A stretch of DNA of 64,000 nt from Diploptera punctata (Eukaryota > Arthropoda > Insecta > Blattodea > Blaberidae). The notes below the pieces were generated by a model. The model ran no database searches. It saw only the letters and a list, made by a program, of their open reading frames with translations, and was not told the origin of the DNA. Made by a program: the position numbers and the translations under genes. The stretch lies in the NCBI GenBank assembly GCA_030220185.1, contig JASPKZ010010276.1, positions 470,501 to 534,500 of the forward strand, written 5' to 3'. This document shows positions 8,891 to 59,835 of the stretch, piece by piece (the stretch's first letter is position 1; each line of letters opens with the position of its first letter).

Positions 8891-8964
8891 TTATTTGTAC
8901 TTTTAATAAACATTTTATACCGTTGAGGTTACTGTTAAATATTTAAAGCAATAAAATTTGTACA

Positions 8965-9226
8965 TGTTGCGGTAGTCGTCCTCTACAAATTATATGTTGA
9001 TAAAATATTCAGCTAGGCCTTTCCGAACCGGTTCCACTTTGAAAGCTGTTCATTGGGTAGGCCTACTGGTTGTTTTTAATACGCCCTACCAGATCAACCC
9101 ACTTTACAATACATTCGTTAAAAACAACCAGTACCCAACGAACAGCTTTAAAAATGGAACCGGTTCTGGAAGGCCTAGCTGAATATTTTATACACATAGA
9201 AATTATTGAGGACGCCTGCCACAACA
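8965..9226. repeat. Palindromic foldback element
   Basis: Two arms of roughly 108 bp (8965 to about 9074 and about 9119-9226) are imperfect reverse complements round a spacer of about 40 bp. Shared blocks include TATAAAATATTCAGCTAGGC, GAACCGGTTCCA and AAAGCTGTTC. The left arm has a short insertion (GGCCTA) absent from the right. The ends are TGTTGCGG and CCACAACA. No clear target duplication and no protein are seen. It could be a MITE or foldback transposon, or a locally formed inverted duplication. Confidence 0.75.
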
Positions 9227-9235
9227 GGTATAAAT

Positions 9236-9298
9236 AATATTATTATTTGTGTCATTATTATTATTATATTATTATTTGTGTCATTATTATTATTATTA

Positions 9299-13002: not shown

Positions 13003-13690
13003 AACTAACTCACTGGCTGTATCGAAGCCGTACGTTCATGGTCGCGTGGACATTAGTTCTCCACGCATCCCTAACCGAGCTAATGTTTTCCAGTCATTCC
13101 ATGTATAATCTACTTCCCTCAAATCATGGATAACGTTATTCTCCCATCTCATTCTTGTTCTACCAACTGAGCGTTTTCCCTCTGGTTTTCCTATAAGGAG
13201 CTTCCATGCACATCTTTCATTCCCCATTCGTGCCACTTAGCCTGCCCATCGGAGTTTACGAGACTTCACTGATCCTATTATATCTGGCTTCCTATACACA
13301 CCATGTAGCTCACTATTAATCAGTATTCTCCATTCACCTGTCTGTTCATCTCTTTTTGGCCCAAGAATTTTCCTAATAACTTTATTCTCAAATACGCGCA
13401 ATCATTTGTCCTCCCTTAAAGTAAGATTCCATGTTACGCATCCATATAATATAACTGATAGAATAACTGCTTTATATATTTTCAGTTTAACGTTTTTTGA
13501 AAGGAGTTTGGACGACAATAGTCCCTGTAATGCATGATAGCATGTATTTCCAGAATTGAGCCTATGTTTAATTTTTTGTGCATCTCGTTGATATTTGTTA
13601 TTATTGTTCCCAGATATTTGTATTATGCCACTTCCTAAAAATGTTCCTCATTTGTCAATAACTCATGTCGTTCTGATACTGTTAAAATTT
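13003..13690 (-). pseudogene. RTE-B LINE, diverged 5'-truncated copy
   Basis: The minus strand encodes the RTE-B C-terminal third in broken frames: MARMGNERCAWKLLIGKPEG, VGRTRMRWEN, DLREVDYTWNDW. The upstream parts of the family (the VILYG...TW region and the HRLNSGN-type region) are recognisable with many changes. The 3' end at the left has GATACAGCCAGTGAGTTAGT. It is an old copy. Confidence 0.75.
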
Positions 13691-21196: not shown

Positions 21197-21234
21197 CTTC
21201 TCTCCATTTTGAAGAAGACAATTCCTGATGATCA

Positions 21235-21244
21235 CGAATCCATT
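21235..21244 (+). repeat. Target duplication of the solo PLE, left copy
   Basis: CGAATCCATT, repeated at 21671-21680. It brackets the inverted-repeat unit within the R2-like LINE. Confidence 0.8.
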
Positions 21245-21328
21245 ACTTATTTTAGGAATTCTCACTATGAGGTATATTCATTAAGGTAGAATATGTTTAT
21301 CATTCACCTCATATTGTTCTTCTTATTT

Positions 21329-21379
21329 GATTATAAACTAGTTTCGGAACATAGTTTCTGTTCCATCCTCAGTATCATC
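21329..21379 (-). ncRNA. Hammerhead ribozyme motif, left arm
   Basis: Reverse-complement copy of the motif at 21572-21622: stem I strands at 21373-21379 and 21329-21335, core CTGAGGA, stem II GGAAC/GTTCC, GAAA. See the plus-strand copy for details. Confidence 0.75.
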
Positions 21380-21571
21380 ACGACCGTTGTTCTGTCGTCT
21401 TGAAGAGTTGTCCTTCTCTCCTTCCATTGGCTGACTGAAAAACCTCGAAACCGGGTCAAGAAATTAATGAACTTTGAAATTCCCGGTGAGAATGACCTGG
21501 TTTCGAGGTTTTTCAGTCAGCCAATGGAAGGAGAGAAGGACAACTCTTCAAGACGACAGAACAACGGTCGT

Positions 21572-21622
21572 GATGATACTGAGGATGGAACAGAAACTAT
21601 GTTCCGAAACTAGTTTATAATC
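21572..21622 (+). ncRNA. Hammerhead ribozyme motif, right arm
   Basis: Stem I is GATGATA (21572-21578) with TATAATC (21616-21622), 6 of 7 pairs. The core is CTGAGGA (21579-21585). Stem II is GGAAC (21587-21591)/GTTCC (21601-21605). Then comes GAAA (21606-21609), a very short stem III AC/GT, and a cleavage position expected after the T at 21615. This fits the minimal type I hammerheads known from Penelope-like elements. A U between core and stem II and the 2-nt stem III loop are weak points; dimer formation is known to help such forms. Confidence 0.75.
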
Positions 21623-22905
21623 AAATAAGAAGAACAATATGAGGTGAGTGATAAACATATTCTACCTTAACGAATCCATTGATTTGCTGATGTATATCCA
21701 CTGTAGAGAACAATGTATTTTCCTTTATGAGGAAGTTGACTCCAGAGAACTGCTTCTTTGTCTCTTAGTTGTTTCGTAAGTTTTCTTGCATCTGGTAGAA
21801 GACATTCGAGTATTAATATTGATGTCACTAGGTTCAATGTTAAGGTCTCTCACACATTGTAACCTTTCCCCTTTTAGATTTCGGAGAGTAGTACTATATG
21901 AATTATTGTCTTGGTAAAGAAAATGGCAAATGCTGTAATTTTGTTTCCCATGTTGCTCAAAATAAACCAGGTCCTTTATTCCGACGTTCAGTATATAACA
22001 TGCGATCAGGGACATCTATCGGAAGATGTAACATTTCTTTAAGCCCACTTCTCAAACGTTTATCACAATTCACTTTTTTTTTTGGTATTTGATTTGGTGG
22101 TACTGTTTGATACCGCTAACATAGACTTAGAGATATGGAACAAATTAAAACTGTAAATTTCTGATCAGGCTGTAACAGCGGTGAAGTAATGAGAGTTTCA
22201 ATATTATTCCGTAATTTAGTAAGGGTTTGTTTAGAATCAAAAGTTATATGATCTGAAAAGATGACACCTAGATAACTAATAGTTTCAGTGATTTTTTGGG
22301 CACGAATTGCATGCCCATCAAATTGGAGATATTTTTCACATAGTTTACCTTTCTCGATTGAAAACACTGCTGATTGGAAACAATAATTTGAAGGCCTTTC
22401 CTGAAACCTCTGCAGAACTATTCTTGTCAGTTCACTGGCAGCTGCTATATAGTTCCCTATAATCACCGTGTCATCAGTAAAGCTCATAATTGTTAAACGA
22501 GGTTGATCTGGAAGTAATAAGTAACAATATTACCTTGTTGTTGATATTTCTGAGAGTTCATAGAGAATATGATTAGTTGTAATGCTATATAAGGACGGTG
22601 ATAACGGAGAATCTTGTAGAACACCTCGATTGATAGTAATTGGTCTAGTTTTATTTTGATAGGTTTCAATTTGAGTCGTGTTTCCTCCTGAAGATTTAAT
22701 ATTAATTATGATATTTTTAATACACCGACAGTTTGCAATGTGTTCTTAAGATGATTATGTCCTATATTATTAAAGGCTTTACTGATGTCCGAAAAAACTA
22801 TACATACAGACTCTTTCTTTTGTTTTGCTGATTGTAAGATACTATTTAGGATAGATGTATTAATGTGTGTGCATTGAGAATTTATGAAACCTCTCTGATG
22901 TTAAA

Positions 22906-25721: not shown

Positions 25722-25734
25722 AATGAACAATTTA
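25722..25734 (+). repeat. Probable target duplication of the PLE, left copy
   Basis: AATGAACAATTTA, repeated at 27022-27034. It lies just outside the long inverted repeats. Confidence 0.65.
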
Positions 25735-25778
25735 ATAATTAAATTAATGTTTTTATTACCTCACCTCATATCTTTTTT

Positions 25779-25823
25779 CTTCTATACTGCAGTTTCGGAG
25801 CTTATCTCCATCGTCAGTAGCCT
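25779..25823 (-). ncRNA. Hammerhead ribozyme motif, left arm of PLE
   Basis: Reverse complement of the motif at 26889-26935 with identical sequence through the core. The core complement TCGTCAG lies at 25811-25817. Confidence 0.7.
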
Positions 25824-25958
25824 CTGGTCGACCGGTGTTATGTCGTTTCTTGGCGGTTTCCTTCTTACTTCTGTCGGTGGACCGATGAACCTCTGGATTA
25901 GGTCAAAATTTGCGGGAGTTTCAAAATTCATGAGTTTTTCTTTTTTGTTTTTTTACAA

Positions 25959-26792
25959 ATAGAAGATGCCTTAAAACTCCTGAACCTTCAGAGCAAAACT
26001 GTAAAATTCACAATGGAAACTGAAACTGAAAGACAAATTTCATTTTTGGATCTAACCCTAACTAGAAACGAAAAAAACAAAATAGAATTTGGAATATACA
26101 GAAAGAACACACATAAAGATAACTACATTAAGGCATCAGGATTCAACCATTTCGCTCACAAAGAAGCTGTATTCAATAGCCTAACACACAGATTGGTGAA
26201 TGTACCCCTGAACCGTGAAAAATATGAAAAAGAAAAAGAATACATAATTAAAGTAGCAATAGAAAATGGTTATGAAGAGAACATGGTACACAAGAAAATA
26301 AATAAGTTTAAAAGGCAAAAACTTATCAATGAAAGCACACTTAAAAAACAAACAGAAGAGAACATAAAATTCAAAAAATTCATTTACCATCCTTTAAAAC
26401 ACCACAAGTTCCAGAAAATGTTCAAAGAAGTTTAACATTCGATTGGCCCCAAAGAATGAATACAGCCTAAACAGATAATTAAAACCAACAAAAATGAAAA
26501 TATTGAAGAAGAATACAAATCAGGAATATATCAGATCAAATGTAAGGATTGTGACAAAATCTATATAGGAAAAACAAAAATAAATTTAAAAACCAGATTG
26601 AAAGAGCACCTTAGAAATGTATTAAAGGGTGAAGTGGACAAGTCAGCTGTAGCAGCCCATGCTTGGTCTGAAAAACATTTAATTGATACAGAAGCCAGCC
26701 TAATCAAACAAACAGATAAACAGAAAGAACTCACGGTCTGGGAAAAAATCCACATCCAAAAAAAACAAAAAAGAAAAACTCATGAATTTTGA
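25959..26792 (+). pseudogene. PLE polyprotein end: RT C-terminus plus GIY-YIG endonuclease
   Basis: One frame runs from 25959 to 26792 with stops at 26433 and about 26457. The first part (LKLLNLQSKTVKFTMETE, ISFLDLTLTRN, FGIYRKNTHKDNYI, FNHFAHKEAVFNSLTHR) is the C-terminal end of a Penelope-type reverse transcriptase. The last part (SGIYQIKCKDCDKIYIGKT, LKTRLKEHL, AVAAHAWSEKH) is the GIY-YIG nuclease, with the CxxC pair between GIY and YIG characteristic of PLEs. The nuclease cuts target DNA to prime reverse transcription. The catalytic RT domain is absent and the stops make it non-functional. The reading ends in MNFE-type codons inside the right arm. Confidence 0.85.
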
Positions 26793-26888
26793 AACTCCCG
26801 CAAATTTTGACCTAATCCAGAGGTTCATCGGTCCACCGACAGAAGTAAGAAGGAAACCGCCAAGAAACGACATAACACCGGTCGACCA

Positions 26889-26935
26889 GAGGCTACTGAC
26901 GATGGAGATAAGCTCCGAAACTGCAGTATAGAAGA
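26889..26935 (+). ncRNA. Hammerhead ribozyme motif, right arm of PLE
   Basis: Core CTGACGA (26896-26902), stem II GGAG (26904-26907)/CTCC (26913-26916), GAAA (26917-26920), stem III AC with GT around a TGCA loop, and cleavage expected after GTA (A at 26928). Stem I begins CTA (26893-26895)/TAG (26929-26931). Compared with the motif at 21572, stem I and II sequences differ yet still pair. It should cut the PLE transcript within its terminal repeat. Confidence 0.75.
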
Positions 26936-27034
26936 AAAAAGATATGAGGTGAGGTAATAAAAACATTAATTTAATTATTAAATTAAACCTCATAGTGTTC
27001 TTTCCCTGTGAAAGTTAAATAAATGAACAATTTA

Positions 27035-36294: not shown

Positions 36295-36490
36295 TGTCTT
36301 CTTCTTCTTCGCTTCCTGGTTTAGGCAAGAGTTGCCTGTTCCGTCTTCACTAATAGATCTAAGACCATCTCTTCCGAGGACGTCCGACATCTCTTCTTCC
36401 TCTTGGAAAATAATGGAAGATTTTATTTGGTAATCTACTTTCTTCCATTCTTTCTACATGTTCTTTCCACTGTATCTTGTTGTTAAATAT

Positions 36491-37548
36491 TGCACCGATA
36501 TTAGGTCTAGGCATTGTTTCCTAGTATCTAATAATAAAAAGGTATTTTATTCAAACGTAACATTAGGCCTAAATATAAAAAGAGTAATAACAATCCAAAT
36601 TATACCGAGTTTATATTCAAAATAATCAGGAAACAATTTTTAGTATAATAAAATAGAAATAAATTGATAACTAGAACAATAGACGATTTTGATATATAGC
36701 TTAATTAATTAAGCTATATCATAAAGTTATTACTCAGGAAAAGCATGTATAATTATAGGGTTTTCCAGTGGCAGCGTGTCGAATACAATGGGGAAAAGAA
36801 TCTGAACTGTCCCTTTGTAACATAAGACTCGGCCAGGTAGGTACCTGTCAAACTCGACACAAATCCCCAAGCTAACAGGTGACATTTCACACAATAAGAT
36901 ATTGACATGACAGGTGTCGTCTTTATCGGAGACGTGACATTAGCAAGTCGTTATACAAAATAAATATAATTATTCTACCAACGTAAGAAAAATATATGGA
37001 AGATTTGAACATCCCTCAGTGATGGAGAATGGGCGTAAACCAGCCCCAAAACTTGTTAAATTGGTTAATTTGTAAGGAGGTCCAAAGCACGTGTGGGCGG
37101 GATCACAAAATACCTAATACCCAAATAAATTATTCGCGAAGAGAATCGCACACCAGTTAGTTGCTGGCCCTCAGCCTAATAGATTAGTTAGTTGTTGGCC
37201 TTACTTCAAACAGTGCACACATCAGTTAGTGGTTAGCCTTACTTCAAACAGGGCACATTGCTAGATCATCTCCTACATTGTGCTTTGGGGCTCTAGAAAG
37301 CAGTCGGAGGGCCGACCAGTGTATATACCTAGGAAAATAAAGTAGTCAACTGTGTTAACTCCACGGCAGCCTCCAGTGATTTCATATTAACGTATCACGT
37401 TAATCTTCCTTGCGTTATTCCCTGAGATAAGTTTCCTGATTGCTCACCGAACCCTACCTGACTAGACCGCGAGCATAAAATTCTCACATTCCGAGGATTC
37501 CTTATAATAAACCCTTGGATTAAACCATCCCGGACTAATCCTGTCCCA
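36491..37548 (+). repeat. LTR-like arm, left (plus orientation)
   Basis: It begins TGCACCGATATTAGG and ends CTAATCCTGTCCCA. Near 37332 GGAAAATAAAGT could be a polyadenylation signal. The inner neighbour is CGGCACGTT rather than a TGG-type primer site. Confidence 0.75.
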
Positions 37549-38905
37549 CGGCACGTTATTTATACGGATAATATTATTATTTATTAAATCATAGAGAGAT
37601 TTATGTAAATTGTGTAAAAAGAAATAGAATATTCAATTTAAGGTCTCATTTGTAAAGTATTAAATGTTCAAATCAATCAAAAATACTTCTTTTTAAGTCT
37701 CATATTTTAAGTATCATAAAGGTTTATAGGCATTCCGTCCTTTGGAATATTCAGATTGTTTAAGATCCTAAGTTCATTATCGGTTGGATGATTTTTTTTT
37801 TGTAACTTGTTATTTTGTTTAGACAATAATCGGCATCTTAGCTCATTTAATTTGTAATCGGTTCTAGTACATATTTATAGGTCGGCAACGTAATTTATAC
37901 TCTGCGCGTAAAATCACTCAATTGGATACAGGATAAATTAACAAATTTTACCACCTTTGCGTATATCATTCCGCAACAATGGTTCTTCAATTATCATGAC
38001 TAAACGTCGTACATCATAATGCTACTTCATATCGAGTAGGTCTATTCGTCGAAGAGAATACAATACAAAAGATAATACCGGATCATCTGCGTCCATAAAT
38101 ATTATCATAATCGTGTTATACAAAACACATAAAGCATGCCTCAACTGGCTATCATAAAAAATACACCCTGTATAATATGATCATTTCATTTAATTTCACG
38201 CGCTTATGCGTCTTCAATTATTGCGTTAATCGACCTCTTTATTAGATGCGTTTAGTTCCGACATCTCATTTATTAACTTATTATGCCAATATCATCTCAA
38301 TACTATTTAATATATTTATTTCATCAAGGATAATCATTTATGTCGCAATTTATCAGCGGCATCCGTTCAATGAACTTTTATTTATTGTGGGCGGATGATG
38401 GTCTAATCCATATTTATCATTATTATTATACTTAAAATGTTTTCTCTCTCTTTCAGTTGATTGAGTTTATTGTTTAGCATTCTAATTGTTATTATTAGAT
38501 TTTCTTTAGTACAGATCCATATATTATTAATAAATTCTTTCCACTATCTCACCCAGTTCAATGTGATTTCAGATCTTACTACATTATTTTAACTACATCG
38601 TGCATTGTTGCACTCATGTTCATCATCTAATGCTAATTGATATATTTATTTATACGACTCAATATATAATTAATTCATTAATATTATTTAACTAGGTGTC
38701 TTTATATTTCAACATTAATATGATCTTGCCCCCTTCTCGATTGAGCGTTAACAATACGGGATTTTTTTTATACGGGCATTAATAATAGATCACCCTATAC
38801 AATACTCTTATCATTTATTAACATAAATATTTTCAAGTAATCTGATATTCACTTAGATCTGGGTTCGGATCCCGATAACTGGTTTATGCACGTACTTATG
38901 TATCT

Positions 38906-39792: not shown

Positions 39793-40187
39793 TTATTTTA
39801 TCTCGTGCACCCTGCTCTACACCCGCTCTAAAATTTTCACTACCTTCTACCCATTTCGTTATTGTCTACACTTTCCTGCTCGCAAGCATGCACATTTACA
39901 TCATCGTTTTGGCTCATTGTATCTTGCGTTTGTTCTTTATGTATCACTATTTTACCGCTCCTTAATCTCATTCAGTCACTCGCTTTTATATTTTAAAATA
40001 TCTTTCTTTTTTTTTACCTTTTTGTGGTCTTGGTTAGCTTATTGGATTCGGCGTAGCTCTCTTTTAGTCGTCCTCCTCCAAGTCTACTTCCTCACGTCCG
40101 CAGGATTTACTGCTGGAACACGCCTTTCCACTCTTCGTTTGGTGGTTGCAAAGCAGTTTCTCGAAGCTCCACAGTTGGGCAGCCACG

Positions 40188-41245
40188 TGGGACAGGATTA
40201 GTCCGGGATGGTTTAATCCAAGGGTTTATTATAAGGAATCCTCGGAATGTGAGAATTTTATGCTCGCGGTCTAGTCAGGTAGGGTTCGGTGAGCAATCAG
40301 GAAACTTATCTCAGGGAATAACGCAAGGAAGATTAACGTGATACGTTAATATGAAATCACTGGAGGCTGCCGTGGAGTTAACACAGTTGACTACTTTATT
40401 TTCCTAGGTATATACACTGGTCGGCCCTCCGACTGCTTTCTAGAGCCCCAAAGCACAATGTAGGAGATGATCTAGCAATGTGCCCTGTTTGAAGTAAGGC
40501 TAACCACTAACTGATGTGTGCACTGTTTGAAGTAAGGCCAACAACTAACTAATCTATTAGGCTGAGGGCCAGCAACTAACTGGTGTGCGATTCTCTTCGC
40601 GAATAATTTATTTGGGTATTAGGTATTTTGTGATCCCGCCCACACGTGCTTTGGACCTCCTTACAAATTAACCAATTTAACAAGTTTTGGGGCTGGTTTA
40701 CGCCCATTCTCCATCACTGAGGGATGTTCAAATCTTCCATATATTTTTCTTACGTTGGTAGAATAATTATATTTATTTTGTATAACGACTTGCTAATGTC
40801 ACGTCTCCGATAAAGACGACACCTGTCATGTCAATATCTTATTGTGTGAAATGTCACCTGTTAGCTTGGGGATTTGTGTCGAGTTTGACAGGTACCTACC
40901 TGGCCGAGTCTTATGTTACAAAGGGACAGTTCAGATTCTTTTCCCCATTGTATTCGACACGCTGCCACTGGAAAACCCTATAATTATACATGCTTTTCCT
41001 GAGTAATAACTTTATGATATAGCTTAATTAATTAAGCTATATATCAAAATCGTCTATTGTTCTAGTTATCAATTTATTTCTATTTTATTATACTAAAAAT
41101 TGTTTCCTGATTATTTTGAATATAAACTCGGTATAATTTGGATTGTTATTACTCTTTTTATATTTAGGCCTAATGTTACGTTTGAATAAAATACCTTTTT
41201 ATTATTAGATACTAGGAAACAATGCCTAGACCTAATATCGGTGCA
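40188..41245 (-). repeat. LTR-like arm, right (minus orientation; acts as 5' LTR)
   Basis: Reverse complement of the left arm. Read on the minus strand it ends in CCCA, then CG, then the TGG-type primer site at about 40169-40185. It therefore looks like the 5' LTR of a minus-strand element. Confidence 0.75.
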
Positions 41246-41585
41246 ATATCTTTTCTTTTATGGAGTAGATCTGCAGTTCTTCACGGATATCCTCGTTTCT
41301 TATCTGGTCCATTCTAGAGCAGCCTTTTACTTTTCCTAAAAATTTCATCTCGGCTGCTTGGATTTTACTTTCTTGTTTGGTAGTGGTAATCCAAGATTCA
41401 CTCCCATACAAAAGGACAGGGGCAGCCATTGTTTTATAAAATTTTAATTTTGTATGTTTATGGGCTTTATTATTCAATGTTCTATTTATTGTACCACAAA
41501 TAGTTTGAAACTGATGTTTTTGTGTTCAATATCTTTATCATACCCATAGCTGAAGTCACATCCTAAATATTTAAAGTGGGATACT

Positions 41586-45769: not shown

Positions 45770-46647
45770 CCAGTGTTTCATAAAGGATGGGGCAAACTTA
45801 AATGGTTGAAATTACACGATAATAGAAGCAACAATATCCCAATAAACATGGGTCCGTAAACGAGCCGTTTGCGAGATAATTACGAATGTATGGTTACAAG
45901 CCGCCACTGACTTCATTGTAAACATCGTCCTAGTTAGTAGAAATGTATTTGAATTTAGACTTTACTATTAATTTTTCACCTCATTTAGTTCACATTTCTC
46001 AGTTCACTTTACTTATGGGTTACCTGTTAAAGGAGATGTTAAAGTGTCTTCCTTGCATCTGGATGCAATACTGAGCTCGTCTCTGCAATGAATGTCAAAT
46101 TCTTTCGAAAACCCCCTGGATCATTTCTGAATTTTTGACAAGCATGTATAACTCTCTGCTCCAGTTCTTCAATCGTGTTAACGGGTGTGCTGTACACTTC
46201 GCTTTTGAGGTGACCCCAGTCATAAAAATCCAGGTGATCTTGGAGGCCAAGGTACAGATCCGCCTCGACCTATCCATCTTTGGCCGTATCTGCGCGTTAG
46301 ATGCCGTCTCACAGCAGCAGCAAAATGTGCCGGAGCTCCATCATGCATGTACCACAAACTCCGACGTTGCTGAAGGGAAACATCCTCAAGCAATCCTGGA
46401 AGATGACGCCGCAGAAACCTAAGGTACCTCCGTCCATTAAGTTTTCGTGGAAGAATATGTGGCCCAATGAGATAATCACCTAGTACGATGTTACAAACAA
46501 TGACGTCAGTGGCGGCTTGTAACCGTACATTCGTAATTATCTCGCAAACGGCTCGTTTGCGGACCCATATTTATTGGGACATTGTTGCTTCTATTATCGT
46601 GTACTTTCAACCATTTAAGTTTGCGCCATCCTTTATGAAACACCCTG
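45770..46647 (-). mobile_element. Tc1/mariner-like DNA transposon with long TIRs
   Basis: Inverted repeats of about 145 bp (45770 to about 45913 and about 46502-46647) match almost throughout: GTTTCATAAAGGATGG, ACTTAAATGGTTGAAA, CGATAATAGAAGCAACAAT, GAGCCGTTTGCGAGATAAT. TA flanks both ends (45768-45769, 46648-46649), and the right end reads CACCCTGTA. The interior encodes a decayed transposase on the minus strand. Confidence 0.8.
45960..46480 (-). pseudogene. Transposase C-terminal half, decayed
   Basis: The minus strand gives, across frames, HILPRKLNGGTLGF, VGVCGTCMMELRHILLLL, EADLYLGLQDHLDFYDWGHL, KSEVYSTPVNTIEELEQRV, ACQKFRNDPGGF. This is the end of a DDE transposase (pathogen-free insect Tc1/mariner-like type); the block DFxxWGHLKSxVYxTPV also occurs at 23400. 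Stops and frameshifts are present. Confidence 0.7.
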
Positions 46648-46670
46648 TATATATACAGATATATATATAT

Positions 46671-46979
46671 ATATCCATCCATCCATCCATAGTAATTCTG
46701 CCCGATAGCAGGTCTTTCATTGCAATCATAGCATTTTCATGCTATGCTTGCAGCTTTACTAGGGAAGTGTAGGTGTGGTAGCTTCTCGTTGCTTCCCACA
46801 CCGGTAAAGGATGATGATGATAATGATAAGGATGATGATGGTGATGATGACCATATGATTTCGGGGACCGTTTGGGCCTTATAGTTTTCCTGACATTTGT
46901 CTTACAGGTGAGGAAACCCCCCGATAAAAACCTCACCCAGAAAAACTGCCCCGACCGGATATCGAACCCGGGCCCGCTG
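46671..46979 (-). mobile_element. SINE-1 copy, head-to-head with the next
   Basis: The minus copy runs from its GGATGG tail (46671-46692) to the B-box part of the head, GATATCGAACCCGGGCCCGC, where it stops. The A-box part is missing and the sequence passes directly into the plus-strand copy. Confidence 0.85.
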
Positions 46980-47325
46980 TGGTCTCGAGGTAGCGTGCTG
47001 CCTTGTCACGTAGCGGGCCCGGGTTCGATCCCCGGTCCGGGCAGTTTTTCTGGGTGAGGTTTTTATCGGGGTTTTTCCTCACTTGTAAGACAAACGTCAG
47101 GAAAACTATAAGGCACAAACGGTCCACGAAATCATATGGCCATCATCATCATCATCATCATCCTTATCATTATCATCATCATCTTTCACCGGTGTGGAAA
47201 GCAACGGGAAGCTACTACACCTATAATTTCCTAGTAAAGCTTCAAGCATAGCATGAAAATACTACTCGTATGATTGCAGTGAAAGACCTTCGCTCGGGCA
47301 GATTTACTATCAATGGATGGATATA
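46976..47325 (+). mobile_element. SINE-1 copy, head-to-head with the previous
   Basis: Head CTCGAGGTAGCGTGCTGCC and B box GGGTTCGATCCCCGG, full body, and a degraded terminal hairpin (CTTCG-CTCG-GGCAG). It joins the inverted neighbour within GGGCCCGCTG with no spacer. Confidence 0.85.
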
Positions 47326-52799: not shown

Positions 52800-53740
52800 C
52801 TAGTATAATATAAAAATAGATTTTAGTAAAACAAAAACTATGACAATATGCGGATAAGAAGTTAAAATAAAATTAAATAGAAATATTGTTGAACAAGTAT
52901 CCGAACTATATAACCTCTCTCACTGAACTTCTGAAACACAAAATTATATATACCGGTAGTTAAAATTACAGGAATATAAGACGAATTAGTCCACCGCTGT
53001 GGTCTCGAGGTAGCGTGCTGCCTTGTCACGCATCGGGCCCGGGTTCGATCACCGGTCGGGGCAGTTTTTCTGGGTGAGGTTTTTCTCGGGGTTTTTCCTC
53101 ACCTGTAAGACAAATGTCAGGAAAACGTTAAGGCCCAAACGGTCCCCGAAATCATATGGCCATAATCATCATCCTTATCATCTCATCATCATCATCGTCC
53201 TTCACCGGTGTGGAAAGCAACGGGAAGCTACCACACCTACAATTCCCTAGTAAAGCTGCAAAGCATAGCATGAAAATGCTATGAGTGCAGTGAAAGACCT
53301 GTCCTCGGGCAGAATTACTATGGATGGATGGAAGACGAATTAAATCATTAAACTAAGAAAGGGAAACAATTTTAAACTAAATTACGATAACACAATGTAA
53401 CTGCAAAAGCATCTCTAAAGTATAGCCGTGAAAACTGGATCTTGAAATCTAGACATAAAACCAAATTACAAACTGCACAAATTAGAATTTGATTACCTCT
53501 CTTTGTTAGATCTACGTAGGTTAGTTTCAGAGAGGAGTGTTGACAATCGGGAAAGGTTAAAAGTTCAAAACATAGGAGAAGATATTGAAACACATAAAAA
53601 TAGCTGGTTAAATTACCTCCATAGAATGTATTCAAATCGTTTAACAAAGACGATATTCCAGTTTCAATCTAAAGGACATAGAAACAGAGGAGAGCCTAAA
53701 CAACACTGGATAAATAGTGTACAATAAAAACTATTAGTCA
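52800..53740 (+). pseudogene. RTE-A-type LINE split by SINE-1
   Basis: Left of the SINE: KIDFSKTKTMTICG, VKIKLNRNIVEQVSE. Right of it: a degraded block, WILKSRHKTKLQTAQIR, NRERLKVQNIGEDIETHKNS, WLNYLHRMYSNRLTKTIF, GEPKQHWINSVQ. The SINE at 52989-53331 sits between them with an 11-bp duplication, AAGACGAATTA (52978-52988, 53332-53342). Stops and shifts make it a pseudogene. Confidence 0.7.
52989..53331 (+). mobile_element. SINE-1 copy with target duplication
   Basis: Complete copy from GTCCACCGCTGTGGTC to the GGATGGATGG tail, bounded by AAGACGAATTA. The terminal hairpin is CTGTC-CTCG-GGCAG, still pairing through a wobble. Confidence 0.9.
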
Positions 53741-53811
53741 TCAATGATACTGAAGCCATGAATATTCGGACTTCTTAAAAGATTGACTTCAATTCACACA
53801 TTCATTTCATA

Positions 53812-54141
53812 GTAATTCTGCCCGAAGGCAGGTCCTTCACTGATATCATAGCATTTTCATGCTATGCTTGCAGCTTTGCTAGGGAATTCTAGGTGTGGTA
53901 GCTTCCCGTTGCTTTCCACACCGGTGAAGGATGATGATGATGATGATGATGATGATAAGGATGATGATGATGGCCATATGATTTCGGGGACCATTTGGGC
54001 CTTAAAGTTTTCCTGATATTTGTCTTACAGTTGAGGAAAAACCCCGATAAAACCTCACCCGGGAAAACCGCTCCGACCGGGGATCGAACCCGGGCCCGCT
54101 GCGTGACAAGGCAGCACGCTACCTCGAGACCTGCGGTGGAC
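53812..54141 (-). mobile_element. SINE-1 copy
   Basis: Complete minus copy: the hairpin CTGCC-TTCG-GGCAG at the left and the head (B box GGGTTCGATCCCCGG, CTCGAGGTAGCGTGCTGCC, GTCCACCGCAGG) at the right. A GATGAT repeat of about 25 bp occupies the CAT-rich part. Confidence 0.9.
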
Positions 54142-58447: not shown

Positions 58448-58735
58448 TAATTACTAACTAATTGGCAGTATCGAATCCGAAGGTTCATGACCGCGCGGAT
58501 ATAAGCTCTCCATAGACCTATATCCCAATGCGGAGTTAATATTTTGCACTCATCTCCTGTATAGTTTAACTCCCTCAAATGATGGTTTATGTTATTCTCC
58601 CACATCATTCTTGGTCTTACTTACTGGGCGTTTTCCCTCTGGTTTTCCAACTAGAAGCTTCCATGCCTCTCTTTCATTTCCCATTCATGTCACATGTGCT
58701 GCCTATCTCAATCTACTTGACTTAACTGTTCTTAT
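58448..58735 (-). pseudogene. RTE-B LINE, 3' fragment
   Basis: The minus strand shows the family tail in broken frames (a GNER.AWKLLVGKPEG-like block, MMWENNI, DLRELNYTG-like) and the end GAACC-TTCG-GATTC, GATACTGCCAATTAGTTAGT. Diverged copy. Confidence 0.7.
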
Positions 58736-59589: not shown

Positions 59590-59835
59590 AACAAAATTTA
59601 AAATATAAAATAGATACCTCAGATGTCAGTCTTTCTCAACTTTATAAAGGCTGTAAGATGCGAAGTACTTTCGGGAAAATTTGCTCCATCCTCAGCATGT
59701 AAATTGGTACCATGTTAAATTGGTACATGCTGAGGATGGAGCATATGTTCCGAAAGTGCTTCACATCTCACAGCCTTTATAAAGTTGAGGACGGCTGAGA
59801 TCTCAGATATCTATTTTATATTATAAATATTACAT
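59590..59835. mobile_element. Third PLE-like inverted pair
   Basis: Arms of about 105 bp (about 59600-59705 and about 59718-59826) are imperfect reverse complements sharing AAATAGATA, CAACTTTATAAAGGCTGT and CTCCATCCTCAGCATGTA. The plus-strand arm contains the PLE hammerhead core arrangement. Only the terminal part of the element remains. No coding region is left and no target duplication is certain. Confidence 0.6.
59725..59766 (+). ncRNA. Decayed hammerhead motif
   Basis: CTGAGGA (59730-59736), stem II GGAGC (59738-59742)/GTTCC (59747-59751) with one wobble, GAAA (59752-59755), then a short stem AG/CT. Stem I pairs only weakly, so it is probably inactive. The opposite arm has a more degraded copy. 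Confidence 0.55.

What the first reader, a model, noticed from the sequence alone, without database searches (positions are those of the whole stretch)
25735..27021. Penelope-like element framed by inverted arms, each with a hammerhead ribozyme
Seen: arms of about 220 bp in inverted orientation, a middle coding for a PLE-type RT end and a GIY-YIG nuclease with CxxC, and in each arm CTGACGA, a 4-bp stem II, GAAA and a GTA cleavage site. Known: PLEs carry hammerhead motifs in their terminal repeats. Inferred: because the arms are inverted, transcription from either side would give an RNA able to fold on itself and to cut near one end only.
Basis: partly seen in the sequence, partly recalled or inferred. 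Interest (0 to 1): 0.75.

Follow-up and report, generated by a model that had tools for sequence, protein, structure and literature searches.

The report
Head-to-head Penelope retrotransposon with hammerhead motifs
This is a broken, apparently recent copy of a known kind of jumping gene (a Penelope-like element) in what looks like a cockroach genome; its mirror-image ends look like separate DNA copies primed at both sides of one cut, which bears on a noted oddity of these elements but is not a new kind of system.

Summary
The middle is a frame-broken C-terminal PLE remnant with a GIY-YIG endonuclease (E=7.8e-9). Each arm has a minimal type I hammerhead-like core. No Rfam hammerhead model matches it, but a complete-looking extra-U hammerhead in a viral contig also scored far below threshold. 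It is an ordinary 5'-truncated Penelope-like element with inverted pseudo-LTRs, an arrangement in print since at least 2013 (PMC3846280). The ends add something. The optional 'tail' is on the right here and on the left in a second copy (21234-21680). The four ends lie at two distances from the hammerhead (+77 to +91, +120 to +122); the outer one is close to RT starts measured for the anole PLE. Best reading: both target strands primed reverse transcription independently, at either of two start sites, and the cDNAs were joined head-to-head.

The parts
25722..25734 (.). Target-site duplication, left copy (AATGAACAATTTA)
   Evidence: 13-nt exact direct repeat with 27022-27034, only two occurrences in the window
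25735..25954 (-). Left arm: inverted pseudo-LTR without tail (identity with the right arm runs on to 25729, into the target-site duplication)
   Evidence: 100% inverted repeat of the right arm
25782..25820 (-). Minimal type I hammerhead-like motif of the left arm; predicted cut after 25785 on the minus strand
   Evidence: mirror of 26893-26931; no Rfam hammerhead hit
25956..26432 (+). Remnant of the PLE ORF: part between RT core and endonuclease, 5'-truncated at about 25955
   Evidence: open frame; matches to P0027-P0030; no Pfam RT hit
26460..26792 (+). GIY-YIG endonuclease remnant with CxxC (CKDC)
   Evidence: Pfam PF01541 E=7.8e-9; 64% to P0001 of Diploptera punctata; alignment A1
26759..26984 (+). 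Right arm: pseudo-LTR in sense orientation (also codes the end of the upstream ORF in another frame)
   Evidence: tblastn frame change near 26775 against P0016
26893..26931 (+). Minimal type I hammerhead-like motif of the right arm; predicted cut after 26928
   Evidence: stem I 3 bp, stem II 4 bp after an extra U, stem III 2 bp
26943..26950 (+). 5' strand (TATGAGGT) of a predicted stem closed by the tail; it contains a splice-donor-like ATGAG|GT
   Evidence: pairs with 26987-26994 in the predicted fold; same sequences in copy B; donor-like motif at 26942 and 21637
26987..26994 (+). 3' strand (ACCTCATA) of the same predicted stem, inside the tail, 3-9 nt beyond the inner end
26985..27021 (+). 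Tail: 37-nt extension present only on the right side in this copy
   Evidence: shares ACCTCATAGTG with the left-side tail of copy B
27022..27034 (.). Target-site duplication, right copy
21234..21680 (.). Copy B, a related head-to-head element: TSD 21234-21244/21670-21680; tail 21245-21275 on the LEFT; arms 21276-21458 and 21493-21675 (98%); hammerhead cores starting at 21372 (-) and 21579 (+)
   Evidence: 98% over 51 aa to P0005 of Diploptera punctata
59593..59831 (.). Locus C, a decayed head-to-head pair (87% over 82 nt) with hammerhead-like cores at 59695 (-) and 59730 (+); a tail-like stem partner only on the right (ACCTCA at +105); PLE membership not shown

Best explanation
A 5'-truncated, frame-broken, endonuclease-containing Penelope-like element of a cockroach (Diploptera punctata or a near relative), inserted in one event. 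Shown: a TSD around both arms, inverted pseudo-LTRs, a one-sided tail, GIY-YIG endonuclease with CxxC, hammerhead-like cores. Inferred: the GIY-YIG/RT protein of another copy cut both strands of an AT-rich site about 13 bp apart. Each 3' end primed reverse transcription of a sense PLE RNA at one of two internal start sites set by a stem-loop downstream of the hammerhead (the inner one gives no tail, the outer one gives the tail). Each cDNA stopped part-way, and their heads were joined, leaving mirror-image 3' ends facing outward. The hammerhead belongs to the RNA of tandem arrays; in this lone inverted copy it is probably idle.
For: One TSD encloses both arms and its sequence is not repeated at the inner junctions. 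The ends stop at recurring distances from the A of the hammerhead ATG: copy A +77 to +83 (left), +120 (right); copy B +122 (left), +85 to +91 (right). The anole PLE starts RT 111-118 bp into an ORF that begins at its hammerhead, in a stem loop, cuts and extends both strands, shows no start-site difference between strands, and its tail corresponds to the stretch between the two RT start sites (PMC11167929, section 3). The tail is right-sided in A and left-sided in B, and both share ACCTCATAGTG, so B's left arm cannot be a fold-back copy of B's right arm. In A and B the tail closes the same predicted 8-bp stem, and the inner end lies 3-9 nt before its 3' strand in both; in C the stem persists with two pairs changed on both sides (read by eye). 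Hits with an organism name are all Diploptera: 3 of 19 (16 carry no organism), 7 of 7, 4 of 4.
Against: Only two copies could be measured well; no host genome was searchable (genome search did not complete). A 6-nt overlap between arm end and TSD leaves the inner ends uncertain by that much. The published proposal for head-to-head PLEs is self-priming, on an antisense template (PMC3846280, passages). An 8-bp stem between these stretches also arose in 225 of 5000 mononucleotide shuffles for A; for B my test window cut the stem and scored it absent. No Pfam RT hit on the remnant. No Rfam hammerhead hit.
Confidence: 0.7

Rival explanations
1. Self-priming: the element was copied once and the cDNA (or an antisense template) folded back on itself, so the second arm is a copy of the first, as proposed for rotifer Penelope elements.
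For: Arms of A are 100% identical; fold-back is the published hypothesis for head-to-head PLEs (PMC3846280, passages).
Against: In copy B the left arm carries a tail that the right arm lacks, while the sense-only 34 nt in the middle continues the right arm; a fold-back copy of either arm would not give this. In A a fold-back copy of the right arm should have included the tail.
Confidence: 0.15
2. Hairpin with a purpose: the inverted pair is kept because its transcript forms a long duplex, for small-RNA production or for one-sided self-cleavage.
For: The + transcript is predicted to pair 220 of 226 right-arm bases with the left arm. PMC3846280 mentions small-RNA profiles of Penelope copies (passages only).
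Against: The same pairing hides the hammerhead; inner spacing differs widely between A (804 nt) and B (34 nt), as expected of a by-product; no expression data were available here.
Confidence: 0.08
3. Two separate insertions, or an assembly artefact, placed the arms in mirror orientation.
For: Perfect identity over 226 nt is also what a chimeric read or mis-join can give; the window has another perfect inverted repeat of 1064 nt.
Against: One 13-bp TSD encloses the whole; the middle and the flanks differ; B and probably C repeat the design; Diploptera gene models P0016 and P0026 also join antisense arm to sense body or arm, although splicing in those models could confuse this.
Confidence: 0.05

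Closest known systems
Endonuclease-containing Penelope elements of Adineta vaga (PMC3846280, passages read)
   Same: 5'-truncated copies flanked by inverted pseudo-LTRs of about 200 bp (a 212-bp example, that one without TSD), optional 31-bp tail on one of the inverted pLTRs, TSDs of 8-10 bp in other examples, head-to-head called the most frequent inverted arrangement
   Different: Here TSDs are 13 and 11 bp; in A all three frames carry stops between hammerhead and tail end, whereas in the Adineta example pLTR and tail cover the first codons of the ORF; the word hammerhead does not occur in that paper
PAc, the Poseidon PLE of Anolis carolinensis (PMC11167929, abstract and all of section 3 read)
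   Same: Hammerhead with a start codon at stem II and cut site 26 bp downstream (here an ATG at 26902 and the cut after its 27th base); RT start in a stem loop 111-118 bp into the ORF (here outer ends +120 and +122, and a stem-loop at the same place); AT-rich target, both strands cut and extended
   Different: In A the ATG frame stops right at the hammerhead cut site; PAc copies are described in tandem, and section 3 does not discuss inverted copies
[quoted passage not shown] Lunse et al. 2017; neither held, known here through passages of PMC6155905 and PMC7761336)
   Same: Type I, weak or absent helix III, found in PLE pseudo-LTRs; self-complementary stem III here
   Different: The extra U between A9 and stem II: I could not check in the originals how common it is

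Membership tests
[quoted passage not shown]
   Pfam PF01541 E=7.8e-9, above cut-off; CKDC between GIY and YIG; P0029 carries linker and GIY-YIG in one frame matching 26208-26726
Penelope-like elements (EN-containing) | Telomerase-like reverse transcriptase | tested here: inconclusive
   Only the part downstream of the RT core seems present; no Pfam RT hit; 81% identity over 59% of the query to P0027 of Diploptera, which lists PF26215 precomputed there (family not looked up) and gave no Pfam family at E<=0.1
Penelope-like elements (EN-containing) | Pseudo-LTRs, optionally inverted, with an optional tail of about 30-40 bp | tested here: met
   37-nt tail in A, 31-nt tail in B
Penelope-like elements (EN-containing) | Short target-site duplication | tested here: met
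   13 bp in A, 11 bp in B
Hammerhead ribozyme, minimal type I of PLEs | Core CUGANGA ... GAAA with stem II between and NUH cut site (motif recalled) | tested here: met
   A GUA, B GUU; stem II GGAG/CUCC (A), GGAACA/UGUUCC (B); pair 4 is G-C, A-U or G-U in A, B, C and stem I pair 3 is C-G or A-U in A, B, read by eye on three loci; C has only a poor stem I
Hammerhead ribozyme, minimal type I of PLEs | Match to a hammerhead covariance model (Rfam 15) | tested here: inconclusive
   No hammerhead hit at gathering or E<=10. Control: an extra-U hammerhead in L001 scores only 12.3-18.3 bits against gathering 34-56.3, and 0 of 3 such loci reached gathering, so the models seem insensitive to this core; no control above threshold was obtained
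Hammerhead ribozyme, minimal type I of PLEs | Self-cleavage | not testable with these tools
   needs an in vitro assay; energies only
Retrozyme (non-autonomous, hammerheads in direct repeats, no protein-coding part) | Direct repeats with hammerheads and no protein-coding part | tested here: not met
   repeats are inverted and the middle encodes a GIY-YIG remnant

The most novel reading that the evidence does not exclude
In this cockroach PLE family both reverse-transcription start sites lie downstream of a strong splice-donor-like sequence (ATGAG|GTGAG; +43 in A, +55 in B), and the donor itself forms the 5' strand of the stem that the tail closes. If that sequence starts an intron, splicing would strip the start sites from every mRNA, and the folded, protein-bound template would in turn hide the donor: a built-in switch between translation and transposition that would also explain why PLEs keep introns. 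Two-ended priming from that stem-loop then builds the head-to-head copies.
Probability: 0.15. Interest if true: 0.6.

Novelty: new member of a known kind. Interest (0 to 1): 0.3.

Why it matters
How PLEs come to be bounded by mirror-image pseudo-LTRs was left open in the papers seen: PMC3846280 hypothesises self-priming and asks for experiments, and PMC11167929 leaves the later steps 'yet to be validated experimentally'. Two copies in one window, with the tail on opposite sides and ends at two fixed distances from the hammerhead, favour independent priming on both target strands and make the question testable with any PLE-rich genome assembly. The element itself is ordinary.

Tried and rejected
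A fixed-spacing core pattern found 0 matches because its 18-base gap was too long for A (14 bases); the open pattern gave 10 matches, 6 in the three loci A, B, C and 4 elsewhere (16711, 10544, 4075, 1626) without a stem II of 4 bp by the rule. DNA of other PLEs: the endonuclease alignment A1 found no relative in viral contigs (174 pattern stretches, none confirmed) or genome contigs (189, none confirmed). P0016, P0022 and P0026 were used as junction evidence with caution only, because these gene models may splice at AG|GT sites in the arms; P0021 was dropped for the same reason. TSD of locus C: only a 7-nt A/T match (59597/59865), so C is not claimed as a PLE. Retrozyme identity rejected (inverted repeats, coding middle). 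In-frame stops of the remnant as point stops: tblastn frames suggest a locally shifted frame near 26413-26484 and another shift near 26775 instead. Function as a hairpin RNA: no data. Cut-site motif: of the four primer ends implied by the TSDs of A and B two end in ATT, the motif reported for PAc; too few to use (by eye).

Full report
What is there. The window (34.6% G+C) contains two arms, 25729-25954 and 26759-26984, that are 226-nt perfect inverted copies separated by 804 nt. Directly outside lies the repeat AATGAACAATTTA (25722-25734 and 27022-27034), which occurs nowhere else in the window on either strand. In 20,000 random pairs of flanks (46 x 86 nt) from this window, 17 shared an exact repeat of 13 nt or more and 87 one of 11 or more. 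The right arm is followed by 37 nt (26985-27021) that the left arm lacks.

The middle. 26460-26792 is open and matches the GIY-YIG domain (E=7.8e-9) and a solved GIY-YIG endonuclease (1mk0_A, E=0.00065). It carries CKDC between GIY and YIG. The protein search gave 19 hits; the 3 with an organism name, among them the best, are from the cockroach Diploptera punctata, 16 carry no organism. Searching with the antisense translation of the left arm gave 7 hits, all Diploptera, and with the upstream remnant 4, all Diploptera. The upstream remnant has no Pfam reverse-transcriptase match, so the RT is inferred from its position and from P0029, one Diploptera protein that covers linker and endonuclease at 66% (window 26208-26726). 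The reading frame is broken: by tblastn, P0028 continues in another frame at 26413-26484 and P0016 changes frame near 26775. With 0 differences in 226 arm positions the insertion looks recent, so the damage was probably already in the template RNA, which would then have been moved by proteins of another copy (inference; gene conversion between the arms is an alternative).

The ribozyme motifs. On the + strand from 26889: GAGGCTA CTGACGA T GGAG ATAAG CTCC GAA AC TGCA GT A|TAG. This gives a 3-bp stem I, a 4-bp stem II after an extra U, a 2-bp stem III and a GUA cut after 26928. The left arm mirrors it. The window has 5 cores with at least 4 bp in stem II, in three loci; 200 first-order Markov simulations gave a mean of 0.05 and a maximum of 3. 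Besides A they belong to copy B (21372 minus, 21579 plus) and locus C (59730 plus; its partner at 59695 minus has a damaged stem II). Between the loci, stem II pair 4 is G-C, A-U or G-U, and stem I pair 3 is C-G or A-U (read by eye; three loci only, so weak). The stem III stretch is self-complementary (ACUGCAGU in A, ACUAGU in B), and co-folding of A favours a dimer joined there (-22.9 against 2 x -9.3 kcal/mol), in line with the review PMC7761336 (passages). Against the motif: thermodynamic folding of the isolated RNA is unremarkable (z -1.5 to -0.9; 16, 39 and 17 of 200 shuffles fold at least as well), its best fold is not the hammerhead (-9.3 against -1.2 kcal/mol), and Rfam 15 gave no hammerhead match at gathering or E<=10. 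As a check I scanned three viral-contig loci with the same extra-U core; 0 of 3 reached gathering, and L001, which reads as a complete hammerhead, got 12.3 to 18.3 bits against thresholds of 34 to 56.3. The Rfam result is thus uninformative, and I have no positive control above threshold.

A second and a third copy. Copy B has arms 21276-21458 and 21493-21675 (98%, three differences), an 11-bp TSD (21234-21244, 21670-21680), 68% identity to A over 207 aligned positions, and 98% identity over 51 aa to P0005 of Diploptera. Its tail is on the left. Both tails contain ACCTCATAGTG. Locus C (59593-59831, 87% over 82 nt) is a decayed pair with the same hammerhead core; no TSD is convincing.

Where the ends fall. 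Counting from the A of the ATG inside the hammerhead (CTGANG-ATGG), A ends at +77 (up to +83 because of overlap with the TSD) on the left and +120 on the right; B ends at +122 on the left and +85 (up to +91) on the right. In the anole PLE the ORF begins at hammerhead stem II, the cut is 26 bp downstream, reverse transcription begins in a stem loop 111-118 bp into the ORF, the tail corresponds to the stretch between the two RT start sites, the protein cuts and extends both strands, and start sites do not differ between strands (PMC11167929, section 3 read in full). The match in distance between lizard and cockroach elements is the strongest link between anatomy and mechanism here. The inverted arrangement is not discussed in that section.

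A stem at the start sites. In the RNA with tail, A and B are predicted to form the same 8-bp stem, UAUGAGGU with ACCUCAUA (A +42 to +49 with +86 to +93; B +54 to +61 with +94 to +101), and in both the inner end lies 3-9 nt before the 3' strand. Locus C keeps a stem at +49 to +55 with +106 to +112, only on its right side, with two pairs changed on both sides relative to A and B (and sequences, read by eye). This suggests a tail on the right in C as well. Alone the stem is modest evidence: in A an 8-bp stem arose in 225 of 5000 mononucleotide shuffles, and for B my test window cut the stem and scored it absent.

Mechanism. I propose, with about 0.7 confidence: a staggered cut with 3' overhangs; each 3' end primes on a sense PLE RNA at the inner or outer start site; each cDNA stops early (A's left arm ends within an A8 tract of the template, 26758-26765); the two heads are joined. 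The published alternative, self-priming, on an antisense template (PMC3846280, passages), does not account for copy B, where the left arm has a tail the right arm lacks while the middle continues the right arm. That PLE copies have a tail on one of two inverted pLTRs is already in print (PMC3846280). Linking the tail side to independent start-site choice at the two ends I did not find in the passages read of PMC3846280, in section 3 of PMC11167929, or in the listings; the library lacks most subscription papers, and the original D. virilis work and Craig et al. 2021 were not read.

What the hammerhead does here. Probably nothing in this copy. In the minimum-energy fold of the whole + transcript every base of 26893-26931 pairs with the left arm, and 220 of 226 right-arm bases do. 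A single transcript has one hammerhead only. The anole hammerhead did not cut without protein, and its mutants did not affect insertion in vitro (PMC11167929).

A possible extra. A carries ATGAG|GTGAGG at +43 and B ATGAG|GTGAGT at +55 (right arm; the left arm of B reads GTGAAT). Diploptera gene models P0022, P0026 and P0028 leave the arm at that point (read by eye). In A each of the three frames meets a stop between the hammerhead and the end of the tail; B was not tallied. If this is an intron, both RT start sites lie inside it, and the donor sits in the stem described above. No RNA data were available, and of the four papers listed only PMC3846280 was looked at (passages), so this is a lead only.

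Verdict.

Noticed in passing
window 36487-37550 and 40186-41249: A much larger perfect inverted repeat (1064 nt, 100%, 2635 nt between); flanks share only 6-nt matches and the longest stop-to-stop frame listed is 215 aa. Could be another recent element or an assembly feature.
   Followed up: partly
window 2632, 13039-13167, 16084, 19649, 49616, 58534-58617: Six places match the C-terminal part of P0001 (64-91% identity), a dispersed repeat outside the PLE part of that protein.
   Followed up: no
L001 9017-9048 and other rows printed: Viral contigs hold complete-looking hammerheads with an extra U between CUGANGA and stem II; 0 of 3 loci tried reached an Rfam 15 gathering score.
   Followed up: partly
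window 45773-47264, 53001-54131, 8950-9241: Further inverted-repeat pairs of 95-169 nt (84-95%) with spacers of 33-941 nt; none holds a CTGANGA...GAAA match.
   Followed up: no
window 26928/26929: The predicted hammerhead cut falls exactly between the last sense codon (GTA) and the stop (TAG) of the frame 26704-26931; in P0028 the same codon is read as Tyr.
   Followed up: partly
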